From: Longimicrobiales bacterium
GTDB lineage: Bacteria; Gemmatimonadota; Gemmatimonadetes; Longimicrobiales; Gaopeijiaceae
NCBI GenBank assembly: GCA_958295645.1
Contig: OY282361.1
Span: 2,136,501 to 2,200,500 of the forward strand
DNA: 64,000 bases
Direction: 5' to 3'
Shown here: positions 17,519 to 60,989 of the stretch, piece after piece
How positions within the stretch are numbered: position 1 is the first letter of the stretch
Layout of the letters: the number at the start of each line of letters is the position of its first letter
Translations under genes and position numbers: made by a program
The notes under the pieces: generated by a model
Databases searched by the model: none
What the model saw: the letters and a program-made list of their open reading frames with translations, nothing else
What the model was told of the DNA's origin: nothing

Positions 17519-17531
17519 CTCTTGTCTCCTC

Positions 17532-17564
17532 CGACCGTGAACATCGTCGACCGTGAACATCGCC
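17532..17564. repeat. Tandem duplication between two candidate starts of paralog A
   Basis: CGACCGTGAACATCG is present twice, 17 bp apart, across 17532-17564. It separates two ATG codons (17560 and 17518) that are in frame and each preceded by a strong Shine-Dalgarno sequence. Either can start the protein. Confidence 0.6.
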
Positions 17565-40100: not shown

Positions 40101-43100
40101 GACGGCGTCGGAGCCTCCCGCATCGAGGATCTTGTTGATGCCGCCGAGCACCACCGCTTCTTCTCCGACTCCGATCCCGTTGGGGTCCTCGTCGTCGGCC
40201 GTCACCGTGTAGTTGAACGTCAACTGACGCGTGCGGGAGCCGGCATTGTAAAGCGCCGCTCGTCTGTTCGCCCCCACGTCAATCAATAGCTGCGGGGTTC
40301 CGGTCACCGTTACGGGGAGGTTGAAAGTCGCGGTCGCGGTAATCGTCTCGCCCAGCCCGTAGGTGTTTCCCACTCCCGGGACGCTCGTGAAGGCGAGCTC
40401 GACTAACCGAGCGTCGATACTGTTGCCTCCGTTCACCTTGTGGCTCGATGCGGCGGAAATGGCGTGACTGCCCAAGCCCCGTGCCGCGTGGGTTCCTGCC
40501 TCGCTCCGGATCGTCCCGCCGTTCAGCGAGAGGGCGCTCGCCCCGATCTCGATCCCGTCGGTGTCCTCGTCATCCGCCACCACCGTGTAGCGGAAGGTCA
40601 GCGACGCGGTGCCCGTCCCCGAGGCGTACGCTGCCTGCCGAGTCTTGCTTCCGATCGTCAGCGCCAACTGCGGCGTGCCCGTAACCCGCACCGGAATGGT
40701 GAACCGGAGATCAACAGAGATCGTTTCATTCGCGTTGTATGTGCTGGATGCTTGCGGCGAGCTCGTGATCGACACCGCGCTCACCGCAGGCACGGTCGCC
40801 CGCCCGTCCACTTTGTGAGCTGGCGCGTTGGAGATGGCGTGGCTGCCCAAGCCCCGCGCCGCATCGACTCCCGCCGCGCTCTGCAGGGTGCCGCCGGAGA
40901 GCGCCAAGCCGGTCGCCGACACGCTGATCCCGTCGGTGTCGGCGTCCGTCGCCTTGGTCACGTAGGTGAAGACGAGGGATCGAGTACGACTGCCGCTGGA
41001 GTAGAGGGCGGTCGGCGTCTTGGTTCCGATCCCCAGCGCGAGCGTGGGCGTGCCGGTCACCGTCACCGGCAGAGTGAAGTCCACTTGGACGGAGATCGTC
41101 TCGCCCGCGCCGTAGGTGTTCCCGCTTGCGGGCGACGTGACGATCGATACTGCGTTAACGACGGGCGCCGTGGCCGGGCCGTCCACCTTGTGGCTGCTCG
41201 CGTCGGTGATGGTGTGACTGCCCAGCCCCAGCGCGGCGTTCGCCGACGTCGCGGTCTTGATAGTCCCGTTGTTGAGCGACAACGCCGATGAGACAACGCT
41301 GATCCCGTTGTTGTCCTGGTCGGTGGCCGCCACCTCGTAGCTGAACGTCAGCGTGCCGGTTTCGCTCCCGCTGGCGTAAGCGGCCTGCCGCGTCGCGCTC
41401 CCGATGCCCAGCGCCAGCTGCGGCGTGCCCGTCACGGTCACGGAGGCGCTGAATCCAACCTGGACGCTGATCGTTTCGCCCGCCTCGTAGGTGTCGCCGC
41501 TGGCCGGCGCGCTGGAGATGGAGACCGAGTTCACGGTGGCGGTGGCCACGCTGCCGGCCACCCTGTGGTTCGTCGAGTTCGTGATCGCGTTCGTGCTCAG
41601 GCTCGCCGCCACCGTTGCGTCGCGCGCATCGTTGATCGCCCCGCTGTTCAGCGACAGCGCGGTCGCCCCGACGCTGATCCCGTCGCTGTCGCGGTCGGAT
41701 GCCTGCACCGTGTACCGGAAGGTCAGGCTGTCCGTGCCCGTGCCCGAGGCGTAGTCCGCTTGGCGCGTCTCCGAGCCGATTCCAAGCGCCAGCTGCGGCG
41801 TGGGGGTCACGGTCACCGACCGCGTGAACGTCACCGCCACCTCGATCCGCTCGCCCTGCCCGTACGTGTTTCCGCTGCCCGGGGCGCTCGCTATCGCCAC
41901 GCCGCTCGCCGCAGCCCCCGTGAACGTTCCGCCCGCCACCTTGTGGCTGAAGCTGTTGTCGATCGCGTTCGCGCCCAGCCCCAGCAGAGCATCGGTAGTC
42001 GCGCCAGCCGCATCGATCGACCCGCTGTTCAGCGACAGCGCGTTTGCCGCGATGCTGAGCCCGTCGTTGTCCGCGTCCGCCGCCACCACCGTGTAGCGGA
42101 ACACCAGCGACGCCGTCCCCGTGCCCGAGGCGTAGGACGCCTGCCGCGTCGCCGAGCCGATTCCAAGCGCCAGCTGCGGTGTGCCGTCCACGTCCACCGC
42201 CTTGTTGAACGTCACCGTGACCTCGATCCGCTCGCCCCGCTCGAACGTGCTACCTACCTCGGGCAGACCGACGGTCACGCCCGTCACGCCCGGCGGCCCC
42301 AGGCTGCCCTCCACCCTGTGGCTGGAGTTGCTCGAGATCGCGTTCGTACCCAGCGCCAGGCTCGCCGCAACCGCCGCGTCGCGAGCGTCGTTGATCTCCC
42401 CGCTGTTCAGCCCGAGCGCGGTCGCCCCGACGCTGATCCCGTCCGTGTCGCGGTCGGATATCTGCACCGTGTACCGGAAGGTCAGGCTGTCCGTGCCCGT
42501 GCCGGAGGCATAGTCCGCTTGGCGCGTCTCCGAGCCGATTCCAAGCGCCAGCTGCGGCGTGCCGCTCACGGTCACGGGCCGCGTGAACGTCACCGCCACC
42601 TCGATCCGCTCGCCCAGGCCGTACGTGTTGCCGCTCGCCGGGTTGCTCGCTATCTCGGCACCGCTTACCGCCGCCGCCGTGAACGTCCCGCCCGCCACCT
42701 TGTGGCTCTCGCTGTTGTCGATCGCGTTCGCGCCCAGCCCCAGCACCGCGTCGGTCGTCCCGCCAGCCACGTCGATCGACCCGCTGTTCAGCGACAGCGC
42801 GTCCGCCCCGATGCTGAGCCCGTCGTTGTCCGTGTCGCCCGAGGCGACCGTGTACCGGAACACCAGCGACGCCGTGCCCGTGCCCGAGGCGTAGGACGCT
42901 TGGCGGGTCGCCGAGCCGATCCCCAGCGCCAGCTGCGGCGTGCCGCTCACGTCCACCGCCTTGTTGAACGTCACCGTGACCTCGATCCGCTCGCCCCGCT
43001 CGAACGTGTCGCCCACGACCGGCGAGCCGATCGCCACGCCCGTCACCCCCGGCGGCCCTTGGGCGCCGTCCACCATGTGATCCCCGTCGTCGGTGATCGC

Positions 43101-46100
43101 GTTCGTACCCAGCCCCAGGCTCGCCGTCGTCGTCCCGTCGCGCGCGTCGTTGATCGTCCCGCTGTTCAGCGTCAGCGCGGTAGCCCCAACGCTGATCCCG
43201 TCGCTGTCGCTGTCCGCCGCCACCACGGCGTAGCGGAACGTCAGGCTGTCCGTACCCGTGCCCGAGACGTAGTTCGCCTGGCGCGTCTCAGTGCCGATCC
43301 CCAGCGCCAGCTGCGGCGTGCTGCTCACGGTTACGGACCGCGTGAAGATCACCGCCACCTCGATCGCCTCGCCCGTCCCGTACGTGCTGCCGCTGGCAGG
43401 ACTACTGGAGATCGACACGCCAGTCACCGACGGGGCCGTGAACGAGGCGCCCGCCACCTTGTGATTCCGGCTGTTGACGATCGCGGCCGCGCCCAGCCTC
43501 AGCAAAGCATCGGTGGCCCCGCCCGCCACATCGATCGACCCGCTGTTCAGCGACAGCGCGTCCGCCCCGATGCTGAGCCCGTCCGTGTCCGCGTCCGCCT
43601 GCACCACCGTGTACCGGAACACAAGCGACGCCGTGCCCGTCCCCGAGACGTAGGACGCCTGCCGCGTCACCGTGCCGATTCCCAGCGCCAGCTGCGGCGC
43701 GCCGCCCACGTCCACCGCTTTGTTGAACGTCACCGTGACTTCGATGGTCTCGCCACGCTCGAACGTGTCGCCCACGACCGGCGAGTTCAGCGCCACGCCC
43801 GTCACGCCCGGCGGCCCCAGGGCTCCGTTCACCTTGTGGCCCGTGGCGACTGCGATGGCGTGGGCGCCGAGGGCCAAGTTCACGTTGGTGCCCGCACCGG
43901 TCCGGATCGTGCCCCCGTTCAGAGACAGCGCACTCGGGCCGATGCCGAGCCCGTCGGTGTCCATGTCGACTGGTCCTACCACGTAGCTGAACGTCAGCGT
44001 CTTCGTGTCGGAGCCAGCCGAGTAGGCGGCCTGGGCCGCCGCTCCGCCGATCGCCAGAGCCAGCCGCGGCGTCCCTGTCACCGTCACGGGGACGGCGAAG
44101 GTCACCTGCGCCAAGATCGTTTCGCCCGCCTCGTAGGTGCTGCCGCTCCCTGGCGTGCTGGAGATCGCCAGCCCGGTCGCCCCCGGCATCGTGGTGGGCC
44201 CGTCCACCTTGTGGCCGCTCAAGTTGACGATGACGTGACTGCCCAGCCCCAGCGTCGCGTCAGTTCCCGATCCGCTTCGGATCGTGCCCCCGCTCAGCCC
44301 GAGCGCGTTGGCCCCGATGCCGATGCCGTCGGTGTCCCGGTCCGAGGCGAGCACGGCATAACTGAAGGTCAAGGTTCGGGTTCCGCTGCCGACGGCGTAG
44401 GCGGCGCGCGCGACTTCGGTTCCTATGCCCAACGCCAGCTCCGGCGTCCCTGTCACGATCACCGGAACCTGGAACTGCACCCCGACGGATATTGTCTCGC
44501 CCGCACCGTAGGTGTCGCCGCCGGCAGGCGAGCTCGTCACCGAGACCCCGGCCACCGATGGCGTCGTGGCCGTGCTGCCATCCACCTTGTGGCCCGTGGC
44601 GGCGGCGATGGCGTGGCTGCCCAAGCCGAGGGTCGCGTCCGCGCCGTGCGCGCTCCGGATACTGCCGCTGTTCAGCGACAGCGCGTTCGCAGTCACGTCG
44701 ATCCCGTCGGTGTCGGCGTCCGAGGACTGGATGGAGTAGCCGAACGTCAGAGTATTCGTGCCGCTCCCGCTCAGATGTCCGGCCTGCCTCGTGAAGCCGC
44801 CGATCGCAAGGGCCAGCTGCGGCGCGCCCGTCACGTCCACGGCGATGTCGAACCCGACTTTCACCTCGATCCGCTCGCCGGCCCGGTACGTGTCGCCCAC
44901 GACCGGAGCGCTCGCCACCGAGACTGCGTTCACCGACGGGGCCGTCGCAGTCGATCCGTCCACCCTGTGGCCGCTGGAGTTCGTGATCGCCGAGCTGCCC
45001 AGCCCCAGCGCCGCGTTGGTCCTGGCGCCGCTCCGGATTGTGCCGCCGTTCAATCCCAGAGCGCTCGCGTCGATGCTGATCCCGTCCGTATCGACGTCTG
45101 TCGCGGACACCTCGTACTGGAACGTCAAGTTCTTCGTGCCGCTTCCGCTGGAATAGGCCGCTTGCACGGTCCCGGCGCTCATCCCCAGCTCCAGCTGCGG
45201 CGTACCCGTCACCGTTACCGGAATCTGGAAGGTGATCCGCACCGGGATCGTCTCGCCCGCTCCGAAGGTTTGGCCGCTCGAGGGGTTGCCGATGCTAGCC
45301 CCGTTCACGGCAGGCACCGTCGCCGGGCCGTCCACCTTGTGGTTCGACGAGTTGGAGATCGCGTGGCTGTTCAGATAGAGCGCGAGAGCCGTGCCGCCGG
45401 CGTTTTCGATGCTTCCGCCGTTCAGGGTAAGCGCATTCGGCCCGATGCTGATGCCGTCGTTGTCCACATCCGTGGCCTTCACCGTATAGTCGAACGGCAC
45501 TGTGTATACGGTAGCGGACTGCGGCGCGAAGTTCGCCTGCACGGTAGAGGCGCCGATCGTCAGTGCCAGCTGCGGCGTCCCGGAAACCGCAAGCGCGGTA
45601 CCAAACCGAACCACCGCCTGGATCGTCTCCCCGGCCCCGTATGTGGTTCCGCTCGCGGGGCTGCTCGTGATCGTCACTCCGGTCACGTCCGACAACAGCG
45701 TCCCGTTTACCAAGTGGTTGCCGTCGTTGGAGATGGAATGGCTGCCCAGCCCCAGCGCCGCGTTCGTGCCCGTGCCGCTCCGGATCGTGCCGCCATTGAG
45801 CGACAACGCGTTGACGCTGACGCCGTTGCCGTCGCTGTCCACCGCCTGCACCTCGTAGCCGAACGTCAGCGTTCGTGTTTCGCTGCCGCTCGCATAGCTC
45901 GCCTGAACGTTCGAGGCCCCGATACCCAGCGTTAGCTGCGGCGCCCCTATCACCGTCACGGGGACCTGGAAGCCGACTTGCACGGAGATCGTCTCGCCGG
46001 CCCTGTAGTGCGTTCCGATGGGCGAACTGGTGATCGACACGGCGTCCACGACCGGAACGGTAGCGGCGCCGCTCACCTTGTGACCGGCATCGTTGGTAAT

Positions 46101-49100
46101 CGCGTGGCTGCCGAGCGACAGCGCCGCCGCCGTCCCCACGCCGGTCTGAATCGCGCCTCCGCCGAGCGACAGCGCATTCGCCCCGACGCTGACCCCGTTG
46201 TCGTCGGAGTCCGCGGCCGCAACCGTGTACGCGAACGTCAGGGCGTTCGTCCCGCTGCCGCTCGCGTAGGCCGCCTGCCGCACCTTGGAGCCGATGCCCA
46301 GCGCGAGCCGCGGCGTTCCCGCCACCGTCACGCCGACTTGGTAGCCGATGCGCACGGAGATCGTCTCGCCCGCCCCGTAGGTGTCGCCGCTGGCCGGGCT
46401 GCTCGTGATCGTCACCCCTGCAACCGTGGCCGCCGTGGCCGTGCGGCCGTCCACTTGGTGGTCGGACGCCGTGGCGATGGCGTGGCTGCCCAAGTCCAGC
46501 GCCGCGTTCGCGCCGAGGGCGCTCTGGATCGTTCCGCCGGCGAGCGACAAGGCGCTCGCAACCACGCCGACTCCGTCCGAGTCCCGGTCCGCAAACTGCA
46601 CGACGTACGAGAAGGCGAGCGTCTTCGTCCCGCTCCCGCCCGAGTACGCCGCCTGCCGGGTTCCGCCGCCGAGGGACAACGCCAGCCGAGGCGCGCCCGT
46701 CACGTTCACGGCGATATCGAACGCGACCTCCACGTCGATCTGCTCGCCAGCCCCGTACGTGTCGCCGCTGGCCGGCGAGCTGGTCAGGCTCGCGCCGGTC
46801 ACCGACGGGGCCGTCGCCAGGCTCCCGTTCACTCGGTGGCCGTCAGAGTCGGCGGCGGCGTGGCTGCCCAACGCCAACGACGCGTTGGTTCCCGCTCCGC
46901 TCTGGATCGTGCCGCTGTTCAGCGACAGCGCGCTCGCCCCGACTGTGATCCCGTTCGGGTCCGAGTCCGCCGCCTGCACCAAGTAGTGGAACGTCAGGGT
47001 GTTGGTCCCGCTGCCGCTGGCGTACGCCGCCTGCTTGGTCGAACTTCCGATCCCCAGCGTTACGTATGGCGCACCCGTCACCGTCACGGGAATCTGGAAG
47101 CCGACCCGCACTTCGATCGTTTCGCCCGCCCCGTAGCTGTTCCCGCTCGCCGGACCGGCGGCGAAGTTCAGCGCGTTCACCGTGGGTACCGTCGTCGTGC
47201 CGTTCACCTTGTGGTTCACGGCGTTCGTCAGCGCCAAGTCGCCGAGCCCGATGGCGAAGTTGCCAAGGGAGCTGCCGTATATGCGCCCCCCGTTCAGCGT
47301 CAGGGCGTTGGGCCCGATGCTGATGCCGTCGGCATCCAGATCGGCGGCCTGCACCCTGTACCTGAAGTACAGGCTAGAGACCGAGACGCGGTCGAAGTCG
47401 GCCTGCCTGGTGGCGTTGCCGATTGTCAGCTCAAGTTGCGGCGTCCCGTCCACCGTCGGGAAACCGCCGAACGTGACCAGCGCTTCGATCACCTCGCCGG
47501 CTGCGTAGGTGGTTCCGCTGGCCGGGGCGCTGTTCACGCGGAGGACTCTGGGGCTGCCGACGGCTCCGGTTCCTAGTACGGATTGGCCGTTTGCGTCGTT
47601 GATGGCGTGGCTGCCCAATGTCAGCGCCGCGGTGGTCCCGCTCCGGCTTTGAATCGTTCCGCTGTTCAGCGACAGGGCGGTAGCGGTGATGCTGATGCCG
47701 TTCCCGTCCACGTCTGTCCCTTGCACGGCGTAGTCGAATGTCAGGGTCTTCGTCCCGCTGCCGCCGACGTAGGCCGCCTGTCGGACCGTGCTCCCGATCG
47801 TCAGCCCTAGCTGCGGCGCGCCCGTCACCGTCACCGCCAAGCTGAAGCCCACCTGCACCGAGATGTTTTCTCTCTCCCCGTAGGCAGCATGGACCGGAGA
47901 GGTGGTAATCGAAACCGAGTTCACCACCGGAACCGTCGTCGTTCCGTCCACCTTGTGGCTGCCGGAGTTGGTGATGGCGTGGGTCCCGAGACCCGTGCTC
48001 GCGTCCGCGCCCAAGCTGCTCTGAATCGCGCCGCCGTTCAGGGACAACGCAGCCGCGCCGATGCTGATGCCGTCCGTGTCCTCGTCGGTGGCCAGCGGCG
48101 CGTAGCTGAACGTCAAGATCCGCGTCCCGCTCCCGTCGGCGTAGGCCGCGTTCGCCGTGCCGGAACCGATTCCCAGCGCCAACTGCGGCGTTCCGGTCAC
48201 CGTCACCGGCAAGCTGAAGCCCACCTGCACCGAGATCGTCTCGCCCCCCGCGTACGTGCTCGCGCTGGCGGGAGAGCTGGATATAGTCACACTGGTCACG
48301 GACGGCACGGGCACCACGCTGCCGTCCACCTTGACGACTTGGCTCAGTCGGTTATTAAGGGCTTGGGCGACGAGCGGCAGCAAGGCATTCGTCCCTCCCG
48401 CGGTCCGAATGGTTCCGCCGGCCAGCGTCAGCGCGCCCGAACCCACGCTCACCCCGTCCGCGTCCCTGTCGCCGGGCCGAACCGCGTACTCGAACCGCAG
48501 GGTCCGGGCGCTGACGAGGCGCACGTAATCCGCCTGTTCGGTTGCGCTTCCGATCGTCAGCGCCAGCTGCGGCGTGCCCGTAACCACCACGGGCAAGCTG
48601 AAGACAATCTGCACGGCGATCGTCTCGCCGGCTCCGTAGGTGTCGCCGCTGGCCGGCGAGCTGACGACCAAGATCGAAGTGAACGTCGGTGCGGTAGCCA
48701 CCCCGTTCACCTTGTGCGCCGCGTCGTTCCCGAAGGCGTGGCTGCCCAGCGCCAGCGCCGCGTTGGTCGCGACGCCGCTGCGGATCGTTCCACCGTCCGC
48801 CGTCAGCGCGCCCCCGCCGACGCTGATTCCGTCGTTGTCCAAGTCCGTTGCCCCCACGCGGTACTGGAACGTCAGGGTCTTGCTCCCGCTCCCGCCGACA
48901 TACGCCGCCTGCGCCGTCTCGCCTCCAATTCCAAGCGCCAGTTGGGGCGTTCCCGACACCTGGACCACCACTGTGAACCCGACCTGCAGCTCGATCACCT
49001 CGTTGGCTCCGTAGGCGTCCCTCCTGGCCGGCGAGCTGGAGATGGAGACCGCGCTCACCGCCGGCACGGTCGCCGTCGAGCCGTCCACGTTGTGGTTCGG

Positions 49101-52100
49101 CGCGGCGGCGAAGGCGTGGCTGCCCAGATTGCGGTTCGCTATCGCGCTGCTCGCCGTAGAAACCAGCACGCCGCCGGTCAACGCGCCCGCGGCCACGCCT
49201 ATGCCGTTGGCGTCCGTGTCGGCGGCCTGCACCACGTAACCGAATCTGAGCGTCTTGCTTGCGATCTCGCCGCTCAGGAGGGACGCCTGCCGGGTCGCCG
49301 CGCCGATGGTCAACGCCAGCTGCACGTTGCCGCTAACGGACACCTCGATGTTGAGACCGACGTCGATCTCGATCCGCTCGCCGGCCCCGTAGGTGTTGCC
49401 GCTGGCCGGAGAGCTGGTGACCGTCACCGCGTTCACGGTGGGCGGCGTGGCCGTGCTCCCGTCCACCTTGTGATCACCGTCGTCGGAGATTGCGTGGTGG
49501 CCCAAATCCAGGACGGCCGCCCTGCCGGTTGCAGCGCTACGGATGGCGCCGCCGTTGAGAGCCAGCGCGTCCGCCCCGACTGCAATGCCGTCCGTATCCG
49601 CGTCGGCGCCCGCCACCGCGTACTCGAACGTCAGCGACGCGGTCCCGCTCCCGGAGGCGTAGGACGCTTGGCGCGTCTGCGACCCGATCGTCAGCGCCAG
49701 CTGCGGGGCGCCGGTTACACTCACCGACACCGAGAACCCCACCTGCACCGAGATCGTCTCTCCGGCGCCGTAGGTGTCGCCGCTGGCCGGCGCGCTGGAG
49801 ATGGAGGCCGAGTACACGGTGGCGGTGGCCACGCTGCCGTCCACCTTGTGATCCCCGTCGTTGGTGATCGCGTTCGTGCCCAGCCCCAGGCTCGCCGCCA
49901 CCGACGCGTCCCGAGCGTCGGCGATGGCGCCGCTGCTCAACCGGAGCGCGGCAGCCCCGACGCTGATCCCGTCCGTGTCGCTGTCGGCCGCCTGCACCGC
50001 GTACCGGAACGTCAGGCTGTCCGTCCCCGAGCCCGAGGCATAGTTCGCTTGGCGCGTCTGCGCGCCGATTCCCAACTCCAGCAGCGGCGTGACGAGCCCG
50101 ATCCTCACAGGCCGCGTGAACGTCACCGCCACCTCGATCCGCTCGCTCCTCCCGTACGTGCTGCCGCTCGCCGGGCTGCTAGCTATCGCCGCGCCGTTCG
50201 CCGCCGCCGCCGTGAACGTCCCGCCCGCCACCTTGTGGCTCTCGCTGTTCTGGATCGCGTTCAGCCCCAGCCCCAGGTTCGCGTCCGTCATGCCGCCGGC
50301 GACCTTGATCGTCCCGCTGTTCAGCGACAGCGCGTTCGCCGCGATGCTGATCCCGTCGTTGTCGGCGTCCGCCTGCACCACCGTGTAACGGAACACCAGC
50401 GAAGCGCTGCCTGTGCCGGAGACGTAGGAAGCCTGCCGCGTCGCCGTGCCGATCCCCAGCGCCAGCTGCGGCGTGCCGCCCACATCCACCGCCTTGTTGA
50501 ACGTGACCGTCACCTCTATGGTATCGTCCAAGTCGAACGTGTCGCCCACGACCGGCGAGCCGATGGCCACGCCCGCCACCCCCGGCGGCCCCTGGCTGCC
50601 GTCCACCATGTGATCGCCGTCGTCGGTGATCGCGTAGGAGACCGCGTTCGTCCCCAGCGCAAGGCTCGCCGTCGTCGTCCCGTCACGAGCGTCGTTGATC
50701 GACCCGCCGTTCAGCCCCAGCGCGGTCGCCCCGACGCTGATCCCGTCGTTGTCGCTGTCGGCCGCCTGCACCGCGTACTCGAACGTCAGGCTGTCCGTCC
50801 CCGTGCCCGAGGCATAGTCCGCCTGCCGCGTCTCCGTGCCGATCCCCAGCGCCAGCTGAGGCGTGCCGCTCACGGTCACCGGCCGCGTGAACGTCACCGC
50901 CACCTCGATCCGCTCGCCCAGACCGTACGTGCTGCCGCTCGCCGGACTGCTAGCTATCGCCGCGCCGCTCACCGCCGGAGCCGTGAGCGTCCCGCCGGCC
51001 ACCTTGTGGCTCCCGCTGTTCTCGATAGCGTTCGTGCCCAGACCAAGGGTCGCGTCCGTCGTGCCGCCCGCCACATCGATCGTCCCGCTGTTCAGCGACA
51101 GCGCGTTCGCCCCGATGCTGATCCCGTCGTTGTCCACGTCCGCCTGCACCACCGCGTACCGGAACGCCAGCGACGCCGTCCCCGTCCCCGAGGCGTAGTC
51201 CGCCTGCCGCGTCTGCAACCCGATTCCAAGCGCCAGCTGCGGTGTGCCGCCCACATCCACCGCCTTGTTGAACGTCACCGCGACTTCGATGGTCTCGCCC
51301 CGCTCGAACGTGCTGCCCACGACCGGCGAGCCGATGGCCACGCCCGTCACCACAGGAGGCCCCTGGTTGCCATCCACCTTGTGATCCCCGTCGTCGGTGA
51401 TCGCGTTCGTGCCCAGCCCAAGGCTCGCCGTCACCGCCGCGTCCCGAGCATCGTTGATCGCCCCGCTGTTCAGCCCCAGAGCGCCGGCCGCGATGCTGAT
51501 CCCGTCGGTGTCGCTGTCGGATGCCTGCACCGCGTAATGGAACGTCAGGCTGTCCGTACCCGTGCCCGAGGCGTAGTTCGCCTGCCGGGTCGCCGAACCG
51601 ATCCCCAGCGCCAGCTGCGGCGTGCCGCTCACGGTCACCGGCCGCGTGAACGTCACCGCCACCTCGATCCGCTCGCTTGGACCGTATGTGTCGTCGCCCG
51701 CCGGACTGCTCGCTATCGCCGCGCCGTTTACCGCCGCCGCCGTCAACGTCGCGCCCGCCACCTTGTGGCTCCCGCTGTTCGCGATCGCGTTCGTCCCTAG
51801 ACCCAGCAGCGCGTCCGCCGTACCGGGCCAGCGCCTGATCGTCCCGCCGTTCAGCGACAGCGCGTCCGCCGCGATGCTGATCCCGTCGTTGTCCGCGTCC
51901 GCCTGCACCACCGTGTAACGGAACCCGAGCGACGCCGTCCGGTTGCCCGAGAGGTAGGCAGCCTGCCGCGTCGCCGAGCCGATCCCCAGCGCCAGCCGCG
52001 GCGAGCCGCCCACATCCACCGCCTCGTCGAACGTGACCGTGACTTCGATGGTCTCGCCCCGCTCGTAGATGTCGCCCACGACCGGCGAGTTCAGCGCCAC

Positions 52101-55100
52101 GCCCGTCACCCCCGGCGGCCCCTCGCCGCCGTCCACCCCGTAGCCCGCCAAGTTCGAGAACGCGTCCGCGCCCAGCCCCAGATTCGCCGAAATCGTCGGG
52201 TCTCCAGCGTCGTTGATCTCGCCACCGTTCAACACGAGCGCATCGGCCGCGATACTGATCCCGTCGCTGTCGCGGTCGGATGCTACCACCGTGTAACGGA
52301 ACCCGAGCGACGCCGTCCCCGAACCCGAGACGTAGGACGCCTGCCGCGTCGCCGCCCCGATTCCCAGCGCCAGCTGCGGCGTGCCGCTCACGGTCACCGG
52401 CCGCGTGAACCCCACACTGACCCTGATTCGGTCGCCCAGACCGTACGCGCCGTCGCTAGGTCTGTCAGCTACATGCACCCCGTACACAGAGGGCGCCGCC
52501 GCCCTCTCCCGGCTGCCGTCCACCCTGTGGCCCGGCGAACTCCGGATCGCGTTCGTCCCCAGCCCAAGGCTCACAGCCACCGCCGCGTCTCGAGCATCGT
52601 TGATCTGCCCGCCGTTCAACCCCAGCGCGTTAGCCCCGACGCCGATCCCGTTGTTGTCGCTGTCGGCCGACTGCACCGTGTACCGGAACGTCAGGCTGTC
52701 CGTCCCCGTCCCCGAGGCGTAGCTCGCTTGGCGAGTCCCCTCGCCGACTCTCAGCTCCAGCTGCGGCGTGCCGGTCACGGTCACGGGCCGCGTGAACGTC
52801 ACCGCCACCTCGATCCGCTCGCCCAGCCAGTACCTGCGGTCGCTCCCCGGGTTGCTCGCTATCGCCGCGCCGCTCACCACCGCCGCCGTGAACGTCCCCC
52901 CCGCCACCTTGTGGCCCGTGCTGTTGCTGATCACGTGGGTCCCCAGCCCCAGGTTCGCGTCCGTCGTGCCGCCAGCCACATCGATCGTCCCGCTGTTCAG
53001 CCCCAGCGCGCCGGCCGCGATGCTGATCCCGTCGCTGTCCACGTCCGCCTGCACCACCGCGTACCCGAACACCAGCGACGCCGTCCCCGTGCCCGAGACG
53101 TAGGAAGCCTGCCGCGTCTGCAGCCCGATCCCCAGCCCCAGCTGCGGCGTGCCGCCCACGTCCACCGCCTTGTCGAACGTCACCGTGACCTCGATGGTCT
53201 CGCCACGCTCGAACGTGCTGCCCACCGCCGGCGAGCCGATGGACACGCCCGCCACCCCAGGCGGCCCCTGGCTGCCGTTCACCTTGTGATCGCCGTCGTC
53301 GGCGATCGCGTTCGTCCCCAATCCCAGGCTCGCCGTCGTCGTCCCGTCACGAGCGTCGTTGATCGACCCGCCGTTCAGCGCCAGAGCGTTCCCCCCGACG
53401 CTGATCCCGTCGTTGTCGCTGTCCGCCGCCACCACGGCGTAGCGGAACGTCAAGCTGTCCGTGCCCGTGCCCGAGACATAGTTCGCTTGGCGAATCTCCG
53501 TGCCGATTCCCAGCGCCAGCCGAGGCGTGCCGCTCACCGTCACGGGCCGCGTGAACGTCACCGCCACATCGACCGGCTCGCTTGGACCGTATGTGTCGCC
53601 GCCCGCCGGACTGCTCGCTATCGCCGCGCCGCTCACCGCCGGAGCCGTGAGCGTCCCGCCGGCCACCTTGTGGCTCTCGCTGTTCTCGATCGCGTTCGTG
53701 CCCAGACCAAGCAGCGCGTCGGTGGTTCCGCCCGCCACATCGATCGACCCGCTGTTCAGCGACAGCGCGTTCGCCCCGATGCTGATCCCGTCGCTGTCCA
53801 CGTCCGCCTGCACCACCGCGTACCCGAACACCAGCGACGCCGTCCCCGTCCCCGAGGCGTAGTCGGCCTGCCGCGTCGCCGAGCCGATTCCAAGCGCCAG
53901 CTGCGGCGTGCCGCCCACGTCCACCGCCTTGTTGAACGTCACCGTGACTTCGATGGTCTCGCCCCGCTCGAACGTGTCGCCCGCCGCCGGCGAGCCGATG
54001 GACACGCCCGTCACCCCAGGAGGCCCCTGGCTGCCGTCCACCTTGTGATCGCCGTCGTCGGTGATCGCGTTCGTCCCCAATCCCAGGCTCGCCGCGCCCG
54101 CCCGCGCGTCGTTGATCGCCCCGATGTTCAGCGTCAGCGCGTTCGCCCCGACGCTGATCCCGTCGCTGTCGCTGTCGGATGCCTGCACCGTGTAACGGAA
54201 CGTCAGGCTGTCCGTCCCCGTGCCCGCGGCGTAGTTCGCCTGCCGCGTCTCCGTGCCGATCCCCAGCGCCAGCTGACGCGTGCCGCTCACGGTCACCGGC
54301 CGCGTGAACGTCACCGCCACCTCGATCCGCTCGCCCAGCCCGTACGTGCTGCCGCTCGCCGGACTGCTAGCTATCGCCACGCCGCTCGCCGCCGCCAACG
54401 TGAACGTCCCGCCCGCCACCTTGTGGCTCCCGCTGTTCTCGATCGCGTTCGTCCCTAGACCCAGCAGCGCGTCCGCCGTACCGGGCCAGCGCCTGATCGT
54501 CCCGCTGTTCAGCGACAGCGCGTTCGCCGCGATGCTGATCCCGTCGTTGTCCTCGTCCGCCTGCACCACCGTGTACCGGAACACCAGCGACGCCGTCCGG
54601 TTGCCCGAGAGGTAGGCAGCCTGCCGCGTCGCCGAGCCGATCCCCAGCGCCAGCCGCGGCGAGCCGCCCACATCCACCGCCTCGTCGAACGTGACAGTGA
54701 CTTCGATGGTCTCGCCCCGCTCGTAGATGTCGCCCACGACCGGCGAGTTCAGCGCCACGCCCGTCACCCCCGGCGGCCCCTCGCCGCCGTCCACCCCGTA
54801 GCCCGCCAAGTTCGAGAACGCGTCCGCGCCCAGCCCCAGATTCGCCGAAATCGTCGGGTCTCCAGCGTCGTTGATCTCGCCGTCGTTCAACACGAGCGCA
54901 TCGGCCGCGATACTGATCCCGTCGCTGTCGCGGTCGGATGCTACCACCGTGTAACGGAACCCGAGCGACGCCGTCCCCGAACCCGAGACGTAGTCCGCCT
55001 GCCGCGTCGCCGCCCCGATTCCCAGCGCCAGCTGCGGCGTGCCGCTCACGGTCACCGGCCGCGTGAACCCCACACTGACCCTGATTCGGTCGTCCCGCCC

Positions 55101-58100
55101 GTACGTGCCGTCGCTAGGTCTGTCAGCTACATGCACCCCGTACACAGAGGGCGCCGCCGCCCTCTCCCGGCTGCCGTCCACCCTGTGGCCCGGCGAACTC
55201 CGGATCGCGTTCGTCCCCAGCCCAAGGCTCACCGCCACCGCCGCGTCTCGAGCATCGTTGATCCGCCCGCCGTTCAACCCCAGCGCGTTAGCCCCGACGC
55301 CGATCCCGTTGTTGTCGTTGTCGGCCGACTGCACCGTGTACCGGAACGTCAGGCTGTCCGTCCCCGTCCCCGAGGCGTAGCTCGCTTGGCGAGTCTCCTC
55401 GCCGACTCTCAGCTCCAGCAGCGGCGTGCCGGTCACGGTCACCGGCCGCGTGAACGTCACCGCCACCTCGATCCGCTCGCCCAGCCAGTACCTGCGGTCG
55501 CTCCCCGGGTTGCTCGCTATCGCCGCGCCGCTCACCACCGCCGCCGTGAACGTCCCCCCCGCCACCTTGTGGCCCGTGCTGTTGCTGATCACGTGGGTCC
55601 CCAGCCCCAGGTTCGCGTCCGTCGTGCCGCCAGCCACATCGATCGTCCCGCTGTTCAGCCCCAGCGCGCCGGCCGCGATGCTGATCCCGTCGCTGTCCAC
55701 GTCCGCCTGCACCACCGCGTACCCGAACACCAGCGACGCCGTCCCCGTCCCCGAGGCGTAGGAAGCCTGCCGCGTCTGCAGCCCGATCCCCAGCCCCAGC
55801 TGCGGCGTGCCGCCCACGTCCACCGCCTTGTCGAACGTCACCGTGACCTCGATGGTCTCGCCACGCTCGAACGTGCTGCCCACCGCCGGCGAGCCGATGG
55901 ACACGCCCGCCACCCCAGGCGGCCCCTGGCTGCCGTTCACCTTGTGATCGCCGTCGTCGGCGATCGCGTTCGTCCCCAATCCCAGGCTCGCCGTCGTCGT
56001 CCCGTCACGAGCGTCGTTGATCGACCCGCTGTTCAGCGTCAGCGCGTTCCCCCCGACGCTGATCCCGTCGTTGTCGCTGTCCGCCGCCACCACGGCGTAG
56101 CGGAACGTCAAGCTGGCCGTACCCGTGCCCGAGACATAGTTCGCTTGGCGAATCTCCGTGCCGATTCCCAGCGCCAGCCGAGGCGTGCCGCTCACCGTCA
56201 CGGGCCGCGTGAACGTCACCGCCACATCGATCCGCTCGCTTGGACCGTATGTGTCGCCGCCCGCCGGACTGCTCGCTATCGCCGCGCCGCTCACCGCCGG
56301 AGCCGTGAACGTCCCGCCGGCCACCTTGTGGCTCCCGCTGTTCTCGATCGCGTTCGTGCCCAGACCAAGCAGCGCGTCGGTGGTTCCGCCCGCCACATCG
56401 ATCGCCCCGCTGTTCAGCGACAGCGCGTTCGCCCCGATGCTGATCCCGTCGTTGTCCACATCTGCCTGCACCACCGCGTACCCGAACACCAGCGACGCCG
56501 TCCCCGTCCCCGAGGCGTAGTCGGCCTGTCGCGTCGCCGCGCCGATCCCCAGCTCCAGCTGCGGCGTGCCGCCCACGTCCACCGCCTTGTTGAACGTCAC
56601 CGTGACTTCGATGGTCTCGCCCCGCTCGAACGTGTCGCCCGCCGCCGGCGAGCCGATGGACACGCCCGTCACCCCAGGAGGCCCCTGGCCGCCGTGCACC
56701 ATATGGCTAGAGCTGTTCTCGATCGCGTTCGCGCCCAGACCCAGGCTCGCCGCCATCGTCCCGTCACGCGCATCGTTGATCGCGCCTCTGTTCAACCCCA
56801 GCGCGTTCGCCCCGACGCTGATCCCGTCGCTGTCGCTGTCGGATGCCTGCACCGTGTAACGGAACGTCAGGCTGTCCGTACCCGTGCCCGCGGCGTAGTC
56901 CGCCTGGCGCGTCTCCGTGCCGATCCCCAGCGCCAGCTGCGGCGTGCCGCTCACGGCCACGGGCCGCGTGAACGTCACCGCGACCTCGATCCGCTCGTCC
57001 TCCCCGTACGTGCCGACGTTCGCCGGAGTACTCGCTATCGCCGCGCCGCTCACCGCCGCCGCCGTGAACGTCCCGCCAGCCACTTTGTGGCCGGAGCTGT
57101 TCTCAATGGCGTTCGCGCCCAGGCGCAGCAGCGCATCGGTCGTCCCGCCCGCCACATCAATCCTGCCGCTGTTCAGCTCCAGCGCGTTCGCCGCGATGCT
57201 GATCCCGTCGTTGTCCGTGTCGCCCGAGGCGACCGTGTACCGGAACACAAGCGACGCCGTGCCCGTGCCCGAGGCGTAGGACGCCCGCCATATCGCCGTG
57301 CCGATCCTCAGCGCCAGCTGCGGCGTGCCGCCCACGTCCACCGCCCTGTTGAACGTCACGGTGACCTCGATCGTCTCGCCCCGCTCGAACGTGCTGCCCA
57401 CGACCGGCGGGCCGATCGCCACGCCCGTCACCCCCGGCGGCCCCTGGCTGCCGTCCACCATGTGGCCGGAGCTGTTGGCGATCGCGTTCGTGCCCAGCCC
57501 GAGGCTCGCTGCCGTCGTCCCGTCGCGCACGTCGTTGATCGCGCCGCTGTTCAGCCCCAGCGCGGTAGCCCCGACGCTGATCCCGTTGTTGTCGCTGTCG
57601 GACGCCTGCACCGTGTACTCGAACCCCAGCCAAAGCGTGCTCGTACCCCCGTAGTAGTCCGCTTGGCGCGTCTCCGTGCCGATCCCCAGCGACAGCTGCG
57701 GCGTGCCCGTCACCGTCACCGGGCGGTTGAACCCCACCTGCACATCGATCTGCTCGCCCAGCCCGTACGTGCTGCCGCTCTCCGGAGCGCTCGCTATCAC
57801 CACGTGCGTCACCACCGGCGCAGTCAACGTCCCGCCCGCCACCTTGTGGCTGGAGCTGTTATCGATCGCGTTCGCGCCCAGACCCAACAGCGCGTCGGTG
57901 GTCCCGCTCGCCACATCGATCCTACCGCTGTTCAGCCCCAGCGCGTTCGCCCCGATGCTGATCCCGTCGTTGTCAGCGTCCGTCTGCACCACCGCGTAGC
58001 GGAACACCAGCGACGCCGTCCCCGTCCCCGAGGCGTAGGAAGCCTGCCGAGTCGCCGCGCCGATCCCCAGCCCCAGCTGAGGCGTGCCGCCCACATCCAC

Positions 58101-60241
58101 CGCCTTGTTGAACGTCACCGTGACCTCGATGGTATCGCCTCGCTCGAACGTGTCGCCCACGACCGGCGAGCCGATCGCCACGCCCGTCACCCCCGGCGGC
58201 CCCTGGCTGCCGTCCACCATGTGGCCCGACGAGTTCGTGATCGCGTTCGCGCCCAGACTCAGGATCGCCGGCACCGTCCCGTCCCGAGCATCGTTGATCA
58301 TCCCGCTATTCAGCCCCAGCGCGGTCGCCCCGACGCTGATCCCGTCGCTGTCGCTGTCCGCTGCCACCACGGCGTAGCGGAACGTCAGGCTGTCCGTGCC
58401 CGTGCCCGAGACATAGTTCGCCTGCCGCGTCTCGGTGCCGATTCCCAGCGCCAGCTGCGGCGTGCTGCTCACGGTCACGGGCCGCGTGAACGTCACCGCC
58501 ACCTCGATCCGCTCGCCCAGCCCGTACGTGTTGCCGCTCGCCGGGCTGCTCGCGATCGCCGCGCCGCTCACCGCCGCACCCGTGAACGTCCCGCCCGCCA
58601 CCTTGTGGCTAGAGCTGTTGTCGATCGCGTTCGCGCCAAGACCCAGCAGCGCGTCGGTGGTCCCGCCGACCACATCGATCCTACCGCTGTTCAGCCCCAG
58701 AGCGGTCGCCCCGACGCTGATCCCGTCGTTGTCCACGTCCGCCTGCACCACCGTGTACCGGAACACCAGCGACGCCGTCCCCGTGCCGGAGACGTAGTCG
58801 GCCAGCCGCGTCCGCAGCCCGACCCCCAGCGCCAGCTGCGGTGCGCCGCCCACGTCCACCGCCTTGTCGAACGTCACCGTGACCTCGATCCGCTCGCCCC
58901 GTTCGAACTCGTCGCCTACCGCCGGCGAGCCGACCGCCACGCCAGTCACCTCCGGCGGCCCGCCCTCCACCTTGTGGCTCGCGCTGTTCTCGATCGCGTT
59001 CGTCCCCAGCCCCAGGCTTGCCGCCACCGTTCTGTCGCGCGCGTCGTTGATCTGCCCGCTGTTCAGCGTCAGCGCGGTCGCCCCGACGCTGATCCCGTCC
59101 GTGTCCGCGTCCGCCTTCACGACCGTGTACTGGAAGGTCAAGCTGTCCGTCCCCGAGCCCGACGCGTAGGAAGCCTGGCGGGTCTGCAGCCCGATCCCCA
59201 GCGCCAGCTGCGGCATGCCGCTCACGGTCACCGGCCGCGTGAACGTCACCGCCACCTCGATCTGTTCGCCCAGCCCGTACGTGCTGCCGCTTGCCGGACT
59301 GCTCGTGATCGCCGCGCCGCTCACCGCCGCCGCCGTCAACGTCCCGCCCGCCACCTTGTGGCCCGTGCTGCTGCTGATCGTGTGAGTTCCCAGCCGCAGC
59401 ACCGCGTCCGTGGTTCCGCCGGCTACATCGATCCTCCCGCTGTTCAGCCCCAGTGCGCTCGCCCCGATGCTGATCCCGTCGGTGTCCGCGTCCGTTGCCA
59501 CCACCGTATACTGGAACGCCAACGATGTCGTGCCGGTGCCCGAGGCGTAGGACGCTTGCCGCGTCGCCGACCCGATCCCCAGCGCCAACTGCGGCGTGCC
59601 GCCCACGTCCACCGCCTTGTTGAACGTGACCGTCGCCTCGATCGTCTCGCCCCGCTCGAACGTGTCGCCCACCGCCGGCGAGTTCAGCGCTATGTCCGTT
59701 ATCCCCGGCGGCCCCAAGCTGCCGTCCACCTTGTAACCCTCGTTGGTGATCGCGTGCGTACCCAGACTCAGCGCCGCATCCGTCGAGCCGACCCTGATCG
59801 TTCCCCATTCAGCGTCAGCGCGTCCGCCGCGATGCTGATCCCGTCCGTGTCCCTGTCGGAAGCCACAACACGGTATAAAAATCTCAGATTCCCGAAGCTT
59901 TCGTCGGTAAAGCCCGCCTGTCGCGTCGTCGATCCAATCTTCAGCGCCAGTTGCGGAGACCCGGTTACGGTCACGTCTTGGCTGAAGCTCACCCGGACTA
60001 TAATCTCCTCGTCCAGCTGGTAGCTGTGGCCGTTGGCCCAAGCATGACTGACGATGTCAACGCCGTTCACGGTCGCCTGGGCGGCCGCCAGGGAGGGGGA
60101 GAGCAGGACAAGCGCGATCGCCCAGCAAGCCAACGCGCCGGGGATCCTGCCCCGTGTGTGGGCGCTCCGGTGCTCGCGGAACCCGGCGGCGAGCGTGATC
60201 ACCACGCCCGTCAGCAAACCGGGTGGTCCTGCTGTTGTCAT
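20160..60241 (-). CDS. Giant (~13,360-residue) surface autotransporter paralog B, interrupted by one frameshift
   Basis: One continuous frame runs from 60041 to 20160. Its true N-terminus is in another frame: from ATG 60241 come MTTAGPPGLL, a Sec signal (ACWAIALVLLSPSLAAAQA) and the first repeat, until a run of four C on the + strand (59803-59806) where one missing base shifts the frame. Restoring one base gives 40,083 nt, exactly 13,361 codons including the stop. Order: signal peptide; about 90-95 SwmB-like repeats of 105-130 residues; nine cadherin-like repeats; an Ig-like domain; a linker helix; and a barrel almost identical to that of paralog A, ending in VSFR. It should be an outer-membrane anchored, fibre-like surface protein of about 1.3 MDa. 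ATG 60343, with a better Shine-Dalgarno sequence, is an alternative start that would put a 26-C run inside the gene. Swimming, adhesion or prey/host contact are possible roles; none is proven. Confidence 0.85.
22112..24818 (-). repeat. Nine tandem cadherin-like repeats of 300 bp (paralog B)
   Basis: Same unit, same copy number and same 300-bp register as in paralog A, but the order of variants differs: three units of the KLAENEAG/DEKEAP type sit at the N-terminal end where A has one KSYAFELAEN unit. The array joins the SwmB-like region through a Pro/Glu-rich linker (GPREPEPGHAP). Confidence 0.93.
24850..26000 (-). repeat. Membrane-proximal SwmB-like repeats shared with paralog A
   Basis: Three units preceding the cadherin array. 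The last two (VSRVLVASAPGASGAYRPGS and VSDVSFSSLPASGDAYGLAE) are close copies of the last two units in paralog A. The third is a transition to the amplified array. Confidence 0.8.
26000..38580 (-). repeat. Homogenised tandem array of ~760-bp two-repeat units
   Basis: Two repeat types alternate: one starting GPPGVTGVALNSPVVGD with FNKAVDVGGTPQ, the other SGAAIASSPASGSTYGL with FNRPVTVTGPPQ. Each pair is about 253 residues, and landmarks such as the GGPQGPPG coding segment recur every 757-765 bp from about 26.3 to 38.5 kb (some 16 pairs). Neighbouring pairs are nearly identical at DNA level, which indicates recent amplification or gene conversion. Assemblies from short reads would easily collapse this array. 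Confidence 0.9.
38580..41540 (-). repeat. Eight divergent single-type SwmB-like repeats
   Basis: Units of the form VNAVSI.SSPASG.TYGAGETI.VQV.F, TVTGTPQLAL and ATDTDTDGI. I count eight. They share the fold pattern of the flanking pairs but differ from each other much more, so they seem older or less subject to conversion. Confidence 0.82.
41540..43830 (-). repeat. Short block of alternating two-type repeats
   Basis: About six units of the same two alternating types as the 26-38.5 kb array (FNKAVDVGGTPQ and FTRPVTVSGTPQ) inserted between two blocks of single-type repeats. It reads as a mosaic insertion or transposed piece of the amplified array. Confidence 0.78.
43830..49830 (-). repeat. Sixteen divergent single-type SwmB-like repeats
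   Basis: I count sixteen units of the VNAVSI/SSPASGDTYGAGETISVQVGF type. They vary in length (about 110-125 residues) and sequence, including units with unusual replacements such as FGGFPTVDG and FGTALAVSG. Confidence 0.82.
51760..56690 (-). repeat. Segmental duplication at 2658-bp offset inside paralog B
   Basis: About 2.27 kb near 51.76-54.03 kb recurs at 54.42-56.69 kb with an offset of 2658 bp (886 codons, seven repeat units). Idiosyncratic landmarks occur in both, such as VYGVHVADRPSDG, RRWPGTADALLGLG and SNLAGYGVDGG. The offset is a multiple of three, so the frame is kept. Confidence 0.88.
59803..59806 (-). other. One-base frameshift site near the 5' end of paralog B
   Basis: The coding strand reads AAT GGG GAA CGA; the repeat consensus needs AAT GGG GGA ACG (LNGGTI). 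A run of four G (C on the + strand) therefore lacks one base. The upstream frame (signal peptide plus first repeat) stops at 59768, and the downstream frame is open to 20160. Confidence 0.85.
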
Positions 60242-60303: not shown

Positions 60304-60329
60304 GGGGGGGGGGGGGGGGGGGGGGGGGG
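60304..60329 (-). repeat. 26-base G homopolymer (poly-C on the coding strand) at the 5' end of paralog B
   Basis: An uninterrupted G26 run followed by AGGGAG. If translation starts at ATG 60343, the tract encodes eight prolines just after the first five codons and is, as assembled, in frame with the signal peptide. If translation starts at 60241 it lies 62-88 bp upstream, in the leader or promoter. Such tracts change length by polymerase slippage. Confidence 0.8.
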
Positions 60330-60342
60330 AGGGAGTTCGTCA

Positions 60343-60355
60343 TAGGGCCACCTCT
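60343..60355 (-). promoter_or_regulatory. Shine-Dalgarno and alternative ATG for paralog B
   Basis: AGAGGTGG (60355-60348) precedes ATG 60343 by a good distance: the GAGGT core leaves six bases. By contrast ATG 60241 has only AGGAA directly abutting it. On ribosome-binding evidence the upstream start is better, although it gives an unusually long region before the hydrophobic signal core. Confidence 0.55.
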
Positions 60356-60681
60356 AGGGACGGCGTCTCGTAGCAACAACTACGGCGTTGCCCGTGCCGT
60401 GCCGTGGCGGTTGGTTGCGGTCGGCCGCAATTCCCCGCTAGGCTCCGGTCGTCCGTCGGCATCGCCGACACGTCCTGAAAATGTGCACGGTCCTGGCATA
60501 GCACAACTGCAACCCCGCTGTCCGGGGCATGTCCGCCCGCTCCAAGCGCACGACGTTTGCCGACTCGGACTTGCGGTACGTGCTCTACGCGGATCGCTGT
60601 AAAGTGGTGTCCGGCAACCAGCGCTAGCCCAGCCGCGCTGAACGCCCTGATCGCGGGCTCCCGCACCAACCGGCGCGCGGC
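60344..60681. other. Leader/promoter region of paralog B and relic flank
   Basis: Should contain the promoter for the giant gene, but I see no clear -35/-10 pair. On the + strand a 32-codon frame (60529-60627) ends CKVVSGNQR, matching the VVSGN end of the decayed gene at 20.1 kb; the DNA from 60603 to about 60650 also resembles 20091-20142. Confidence 0.45.
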
Positions 60682-60989
60682 CTACCGGAAGCTGATCGAG
60701 CCCACCAGGTTGAGCCTGCGTTGCGGCGGCAGGAGGCCGTCGGAGGGCTCGAGCGAGAACGACAGGCCTCCTTCGTCCCGTCTCGGCTGCAGCCGCACAC
60801 CACCCGGTGGCTCCACCTCACGCGGACGCGGAGTTCTTCCCCCAACTCGTAGGTGTCGTTGGACTCGGCGCCGAAGAGGAAGATCATGCGGGTGACGCGG
60901 GGCACCGTCTGAGCGGCTGCCTCGCCGGGACGCTGCAGAGGCGCCGCCATGGCCAGCAAGACTGCCAAGACGCCGTACCGAACCCACAT
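60682..60989 (-). pseudogene. Third giant-autotransporter copy reduced to its two ends
   Basis: From ATG 60989 the frame encodes a signal peptide (MWVRYGVLAVLLAMAA...EAAAQ) and the start of a SwmB-like repeat (RMIFLFGAESNDTYELGEEL). Near 60800 this joins, in another frame, to barrel-end sequence (RLQPRRDEGGLSFSLEPS), which in turn skips directly to DGLLPPQRRLNLVGSISFR and a stop at 60682. Compared with A and B, the whole passenger and most of the barrel are missing; the second junction removes about 285 bp and lies at a GAG shared by both parents. The two parts are out of frame, so it cannot make the ancestral protein. Confidence 0.8.

What the first reader, a model, noticed from the sequence alone, without database searches (positions are those of the whole stretch)
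60304..60355. G26 homopolymer as a possible on/off switch for the giant gene
A 26-base G run lies just downstream of the best ribosome-binding site (AGAGGTGG) and ATG 60343, inside the possible first codons of paralog B and in frame with the signal peptide as assembled. Slippage by one base would abolish synthesis. If translation starts at 60241 the tract would instead sit in the leader. Long G/C tracts controlling surface proteins are known in Neisseria and Campylobacter; in this kind of organism it would be new.
Basis: partly seen in the sequence, partly recalled or inferred. Interest (0 to 1): 0.82.

Follow-up and report, generated by a model that had tools for sequence, protein, structure and literature searches.

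The report
C26 tract at giant gene's start
In an uncultured bacterium of the phylum Gemmatimonadota, a run of 26 identical bases sits just behind the start codon of a giant surface-protein gene and is one of about a dozen such runs placed at surface, sugar-transfer and phage-defence genes, which is how some pathogens build random on/off gene switches; here the giant gene also carries a second frame break, so its own switch is not proven.

Summary
The run is real in the assembly: a pure G26 at 60304-60329, read as C26 on the coding strand, 14 bases into the ORF that starts at ATG 60343, which has a strong ribosome-binding site. It is in frame with a signal peptide; other tract phases stop after 21 or 34 codons. 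It is not isolated. This 2.89 Mb single-contig Gemmatimonadota genome has only 17 G/C runs of 9 or more (about 296 expected), yet 11 of 14 or more (1.6 expected) and 8 of 18 or more (0.02 expected). They sit in or just before a tandem glycosyltransferase array (G20, G26, G11, and two copies without a run), an SGNH-like pair (C15, C18), a sugar transferase, a lipoprotein, a single-chain restriction enzyme (out of frame) and a GHKL-type candidate defence ATPase (in frame). MutS and MutL are present. Best reading: a poly-G/C set of phase-variable genes. Read-level length variation could not be tested.

The parts
60304..60329 (-). Homopolymer run, G26 on + strand = C26 in the mRNA; proposed slippage site
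60348..60355 (-). Shine-Dalgarno AGAGGTGG
   Evidence: anti-SD duplex -10.3 kcal/mol, spacing 4-5 nt
60341..60343 (-). Preferred start codon ATG; leader MTNSL-P8-RPRDAKAH...
60239..60241 (-). Alternative start ATG downstream of the run (weak, mis-spaced SD)
   Evidence: anti-SD duplex -4.3 kcal/mol
60077..60139 (-). Signal-peptide hydrophobic and cleavage region GALACWAIALVLLSPSLAAAQ
   Evidence: translation, in frame with ATG 60343 at n=26
59803..59806 (-). Second frame break: C4 (G4 in mRNA) one base short of the repeat consensus; separates signal peptide from giant body
20160..59802 (-). Body of the giant repeat protein (paralog B): about 91 copies of a 381-bp repeat, then cadherin repeats and a C-terminal domain that looks like an autotransporter barrel by eye
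11249..17518 (-). Paralog A (about 2,090 aa), ordinary SD and signal peptide, no homopolymer run
60679..60989 (-). Internally deleted, frame-broken remnant of a further paralog (signal peptide and first repeat joined to the conserved C-terminal end)

Best explanation
The run is a slippage site for phase variation by simple sequence repeat. Ribosomes start at ATG 60343, five codons before the run, and read through it as poly-proline into the signal peptide. Gain or loss of one C during replication throws the frame and stops translation within about 10-25 codons. It belongs to a genome-wide set of poly-G/C runs that toggle surface glycosylation, adhesin-like and phage-defence genes. SHOWN: run, SD, frames, early stops, the companion runs and their gene contexts, and different run lengths at the same site in paralogs. 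INFERRED: that lengths vary between cells, that switching is selected, and that the giant protein is a surface adhesin. NOT EXPLAINED by the run: the second frame break at 59803-59806, either a real mutation that silences this copy or an assembly error.
For: (a) Runs of 9-13 are strongly depleted (6 against nearly 300 expected) while runs of 14 or more are in excess (11 against 1.6; of 18 or more, 8 against 0.02). (b) Placement: in a tandem PMT_2 glycosyltransferase array the run sits at the same place, between start codon and first membrane helix, with lengths G20, G26 and G11, and is absent from two copies of the same array. An SGNH pair has ATG-C15 and ATG-C18, both in frame with the membrane helix despite flanking indels. 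(c) Phase logic: in frame for the giant SP, PMT C and E, both SGNH copies and the GHKL ATPase; out of frame for PMT B and the restriction enzyme, where another phase gives one 1,515-aa protein. (d) Gene classes match known phasomes: Mrr-helicase-methylase, PDC-M33A, PMT_2 and Bac_transf. (e) SD strength favours a start upstream of the run. (f) MutS and MutL are present with long open frames, so loss of mismatch repair is not an easy explanation. (g) Paralogs A and C have ordinary starts without a run.
Against: No reads or second strain, so no direct evidence of length variation. As assembled no run length yields the full giant protein. No close relative carries the gene, so conservation of the run cannot be tested. 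Some runs (331791, 1275615) lie outside clear coding or leader contexts. The leader before the signal peptide would be unusually long (68 residues).
Confidence: 0.7

Rival explanations
1. Assembly or sequencing artefact: the run (or its length) was created by the platform or by joining contig ends.
For: Poly-G runs are common artefacts in relatives' draft genomes, at contig ends or next to N10 gaps. Consensus length of a 26-base homopolymer is unreliable on any platform. A one-base frame break lies nearby.
Against: Here the runs are pure, without Ns, inside one 2.89 Mb contig, with unique flanks. In the PMT_2 array the same site is continuous sequence in paralogs A and D, so nothing is missing or joined. 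A 39.9-kb repetitive ORF is open without a frame error, which argues for accurate long reads. The single-contig relative G004 has one run of 14 or more, not eleven. Placement at gene starts is not what random joins give.
Confidence: 0.1
2. The run lies in the untranslated leader (start at 60241) and tunes initiation or transcription by its length rather than setting a frame.
For: ATG 60241 is in the SP frame and gives a shorter leader. Two other runs of the genome lie upstream of start codons (559138, 12 nt before ATG of a sugar transferase; 2425576, about 125 nt before a lipoprotein). Campylobacter capC has its run in the promoter (PMC7168839).
Against: SD before 60241 is weak and mis-spaced (-4.3 against -10.3 kcal/mol). 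Most companion runs with a clear context lie between start codon and first membrane segment. No promoter-like site was found near the run and the leader fold is no better than shuffles.
Confidence: 0.12
3. The giant gene is a decaying pseudogene and the run is a passive leftover.
For: Frame break at 59803-59806; a deleted remnant of a paralog lies just upstream; one SGNH copy is also truncated by an internal deletion; Campylobacter autotransporters decay in lineages independently of their runs.
Against: The body stays open for about 13,200 codons and its C-terminal 5.8 kb is about 93% identical to paralog A, so any inactivation is recent. Other genes with runs are intact in some phase.
Confidence: 0.2

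Closest known systems
Campylobacter poly-G phase-variable genes (phasome), including the capD autotransporters
   Same: Poly-G/C run inside the 5' coding region of surface, glycan and type IIG restriction genes; several such loci per genome (PMC6321876, PMC7168839)
   Different: Campylobacter runs are mostly G9-G10 and rarely 13-15; here up to 26, in a 70% GC Gemmatimonadota, in a gene of about 40 kb, and the giant gene is frame-broken downstream
Helicobacter canadensis homopolymer-associated genes
   Same: Runs at the 5' end or in the promoter, frame-shift present, criteria used here (PMC2823697)
   Different: There, length variation was seen in reads; not testable here
Streptomyces coelicolor pglX G-tract
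   Same: High-GC environmental bacterium, G run inside a phage-defence methylase gene, phase variation attributed to its length (PMC4365076). This genome also has a PglX with an in-frame G10
   Different: A G8 run in one gene against a genome-wide set; different phylum; not a surface protein
Haemophilus influenzae lic genes with starts in more than one frame (from memory)
   Same: PMT_2 array copies carry GTG and ATG in different frames (GTGACATGG) before the run, so two of three phases could be translated
   Different: Tetranucleotide repeats in lic; resemblance recalled, not tested

Membership tests
Translational phase-variable gene (poly-G/C SSR): the giant gene itself | Run longer than chance (G/C at least 7) | tested here: met
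   26; genome expectation for 26 or more is about 5e-6
Translational phase-variable gene (poly-G/C SSR): the giant gene itself | Run between start codon and start of the mature protein, with early stops in other phases | tested here: met
   14 nt into the ORF from ATG 60343; stops at 21 and 34 codons
Translational phase-variable gene (poly-G/C SSR): the giant gene itself | Some run length gives the full-length protein | tested here: not met
   Frame break at 59803-59806; the longest product as assembled is 191 aa
Translational phase-variable gene (poly-G/C SSR): the giant gene itself | Run length varies among cells or strains | not testable with these tools
   No reads; no genome of the same genus among those searched
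Poly-G/C phasome: companion loci (PMT_2 array, SGNH pair, restriction enzyme, GHKL ATPase) | Several runs, concentrated at 5' ends or inside surface or restriction genes | tested here: met
   11 runs of 14 or more; contexts
Poly-G/C phasome: companion loci (PMT_2 array, SGNH pair, restriction enzyme, GHKL ATPase) | One phase gives a full protein, others truncate or alter it | tested here: met
   PMT C 540/52/274, E 539/50/437, B 541/46/265, GHKL 596/158/161, restriction enzyme 1515/1090/966 codons in the three phases
Poly-G/C phasome: companion loci (PMT_2 array, SGNH pair, restriction enzyme, GHKL ATPase) | Run length differs between otherwise similar copies | tested here: met
   G20, G26, G11 and none at one site; C15 and C18. 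These are paralogs, not alleles
Single-chain (type ISP/IIG-like) restriction-modification enzyme at genome position 326774-331319 | Mrr nuclease, SF2 helicase and N6 methylase in one polypeptide | tested here: inconclusive
   All three domains found and type IIG profile PDLC03597 matched at E 7e-151, but C18 puts the methylase out of frame as assembled
Autotransporter (type V secretion) | Signal peptide, passenger, C-terminal beta-barrel | tested here: inconclusive
   Signal peptide by eye and cadherin repeats; the C-terminal part looks barrel-like by eye but had no Pfam barrel hit

The most novel reading that the evidence does not exclude
An uncultured Gemmatimonadota lineage has independently evolved a genome-wide poly-G/C phasome with runs roughly twice as long as those typical of pathogens, kept despite intact MutS/MutL, that randomly combines phage defence (single-chain restriction enzyme, GHKL ATPase), surface glycosylation and a giant repeat protein of about 13,000 residues, so that each cell displays a different surface and defence state.
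Probability: 0.45. Interest if true: 0.75.

Novelty: new member of a known kind. Interest (0 to 1): 0.62.

Why it matters
Phase variation by homopolymer slippage is known mostly from host-adapted pathogens and commensals. A phasome of this size in a high-GC, uncultured Gemmatimonadota would show that non-pathogens use the same bet-hedging, probably against phages and in surface interactions, and that short-read assemblies of such organisms may hide it, since they break or go wrong at poly-G runs. It also gives a set of loci that can be checked at once in existing long reads.

Tried and rejected
Relatives' poly-G runs were considered as evidence of a family-wide phasome and rejected: nearly all those examined lie at contig ends, beside N10 gaps or in impure G-rich stretches. 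Homologs of the PMT_2 protein and of the giant N-terminus outside this genome: none useful. Mismatch-repair loss as cause: rejected, MutS and MutL are present. Leader RNA structure: no better than shuffles. Sigma-70-type promoter at the run: none. Start at 60241: weaker. Identifying the source specimen through a sponge HiFi genome paper: no match. G-quadruplex-driven gene conversion among the paralogs was considered as an idea only; nothing here tests it.

Full report
OBSERVATION. The window is G000:C1:2136501-2200500 of a single-contig genome of 2,885,659 bases, 70.6% GC. The best protein matches of a conserved carboxyltransferase from this genome are nearly all Gemmatimonadota, at about 76% identity or less. 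The run is G26 at 60304-60329, hence C26 on the coding strand. AGAGGTGG at 60355-60348 precedes ATG 60343. Its duplex with the anti-SD is -10.3 kcal/mol, like those of paralogs A and C (-9.5); the site before ATG 60241 gives -4.3 with wrong spacing; only 5.6% of random 20-mers of the window reach -7. Through C26 the frame runs into a signal peptide; the other two phases end after 21 and 34 codons.

A CORRECTION. The signal-peptide frame (60379-59768) and the giant frame (60041-20160) are different frames. The first repeat reads ...ISIAADALTLNG and then loses the frame, while the other frame continues ...TIRVGSTDAALSLGTHAITNEGYKVDG. The break is at C4, 59803-59806, one base short of what the repeat needs. 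As assembled the product of ATG 60343 is 191 residues and no length of C26 gives the giant protein. The rest of the giant ORF, about 39.6 kb and mostly a 381-bp repeat in about 91 copies, has no frame error, which speaks for an accurate assembly and so for a real mutation; an error cannot be excluded.

MORE THAN CHANCE. Under independent bases (p=0.35 each for G and C) about 296 G/C runs of 9 or more are expected in the genome; 17 are seen. In the window there are 7,207 runs of two but only 6 of seven and none of 8-25. Against this depletion, 11 runs of 14 or more (expected 1.6), 8 of 18 or more (0.02) and two of 26 (5e-6) stand out. The single-contig relative G004 (4.2 Mb) has one run of 14 or more.

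WHERE THE RUNS LIE (genome coordinates). 33310, 21 bases: inside a GHKL-type ATPase, candidate defence protein PDC-M33A (E 5e-25), in frame, 596 codons against 158 and 161 in other phases. 329244, 18: inside a single-chain restriction enzyme, Mrr nuclease and helicase before the run and N6 methylase after it, out of frame; another phase gives one 1,515-codon protein. 331791, 21: downstream of the same gene, context unclear. 559138, 16: 12 nt before ATG of a Bac_transf sugar transferase. 1275615, 14: between a DoxX gene and a B12-binding (mutase-like) gene. 1790915 (15) and 1794888 (18): two SGNH/AlgX-like copies, ATG-run-membrane helix, both in frame into the helix; the second copy has an internal deletion further on. 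1888101 (20), 1889718 (26) and 1893010 (11): members of a tandem PMT_2 glycosyltransferase array. 2196804 (26): the window's giant gene. 2425576 (21): about 125 nt before a lipoprotein start. Shorter runs include an in-frame G10 in a BREX PglX (ORF of 1,350 codons) and a C10 just before the next gene after PglZ, which reads like BrxL by eye.

THE PMT_2 ARRAY AS INTERNAL COMPARISON. Five tandem copies have the same junction: the stop of one gene overlaps GTG/ATG starts of the next (GTGACATGG), then a few codons, then the membrane helix WPNSGVFWALVFALAVCG. Copies A and D have no run. C has G26 and E has G11, both in frame from ATG. B has G20, out of frame from its only start, GTG. The flanks of C, B and E are continuous with the sequence of A and D, so the run is an expansion at a fixed site, not a join. 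This is the best evidence that such runs change length here, although between paralogs and not between alleles.

ARTEFACT CONTROL. Poly-G runs in relatives' draft genomes were examined as controls. Nearly all lie at contig ends, next to N10 gaps or in impure G-rich stretches. The runs of this genome are pure, without Ns, with unique flanks. MutS and MutL are present with long open frames.

THE GIANT GENE AND ITS FAMILY. Paralog A (window 11249-17518) and paralog C (genome about 2348682-2355407) have ordinary SDs and signal peptides (MRRCL...) and no run. A and B share about 93% DNA identity over 5.8 kb at the 3' end, and a frame-broken remnant of a further copy lies at 60679-60989. Pfam finds cadherin repeats in A and in the 3' part of B; no barrel family matched, so 'autotransporter' is an impression.

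MECHANISM. Shown: run, SD, frames, early stops, companion loci, length differences between paralogs. Inferred: replication slippage, heterogeneity between cells, selection for switching. Of eight coding runs of known phase six are in frame and two out; phase-variable genes are expected to be found in both states.

COMPARISON. The criteria of Helicobacter canadensis and Campylobacter studies (G/C at least 7, 5' position, frame logic) are met by the companion loci. Campylobacter runs are mostly 9-10 and rarely 13-15. In Streptomyces coelicolor a G8 run in pglX switches phage defence at 1e-2 to 1e-4. Only three papers in a library of 5.39 million contain both 'phase variation' and 'Gemmatimonadota', none on the subject by title and abstract.

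VERDICT. The switch reading is well supported for the genome as a whole (0.7), but at the giant gene itself it is incomplete because of the second frame break: it works like a phase-variable gene at its 5' end, yet membership at this locus failed one test (no run length gives the full protein as assembled). Kind: a new member of a known kind, in a phylum where I found no precedent and with unusually long runs. Habitat is unknown; some of the nearest named records (RHO and APA bins, OX638356) are, from memory, sponge-associated, a lead only.

Noticed in passing
59803-59806 (-): One-base shortage in a C4 run separates the signal peptide from the giant repeat body; either a real inactivating mutation or an assembly error.
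   Followed up: partly
60679-60989 (-): Internally deleted, frame-broken remnant of a paralog: signal peptide and first repeat joined to the conserved C-terminal end.
   Followed up: partly
11249-17560 and 20160-25914 (-): Paralogs A and B share about 93% DNA identity over the 3' 5.8 kb; possible gene conversion or recent duplication.
   Followed up: no
L010:1531-6076 (G000:C1:326774-331319): Single-chain restriction-modification enzyme split by an out-of-frame C18 between helicase and methylase domains.
   Followed up: partly
L009:2654-4441 (G000:C1:31963-33750): GHKL-type ATPase (PDC-M33A candidate defence) with an in-frame 21-base run inside the ATPase domain; a Schlafen/AlbA-HATPase gene lies nearby.
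   Followed up: partly
L014 (G000:C1:1884101-1893743): Tandem array of at least five PMT_2 glycosyltransferases, coupled by GTGA overlaps, with start codons in two frames before the runs.
   Followed up: partly
L067:1408-9500 (G000:C1:2805305-2813397): BREX-like locus: PglX with an in-frame G10 and an apparent compensated double frame shift just upstream of it, PglZ, and a C10 immediately before the next gene (BrxL-like by eye).
   Followed up: no
L201, L202, L210, L211: Draft genomes of relatives carry poly-G, poly-C or poly-T runs next to N10 gaps, a recognisable draft-assembly artefact.
   Followed up: yes
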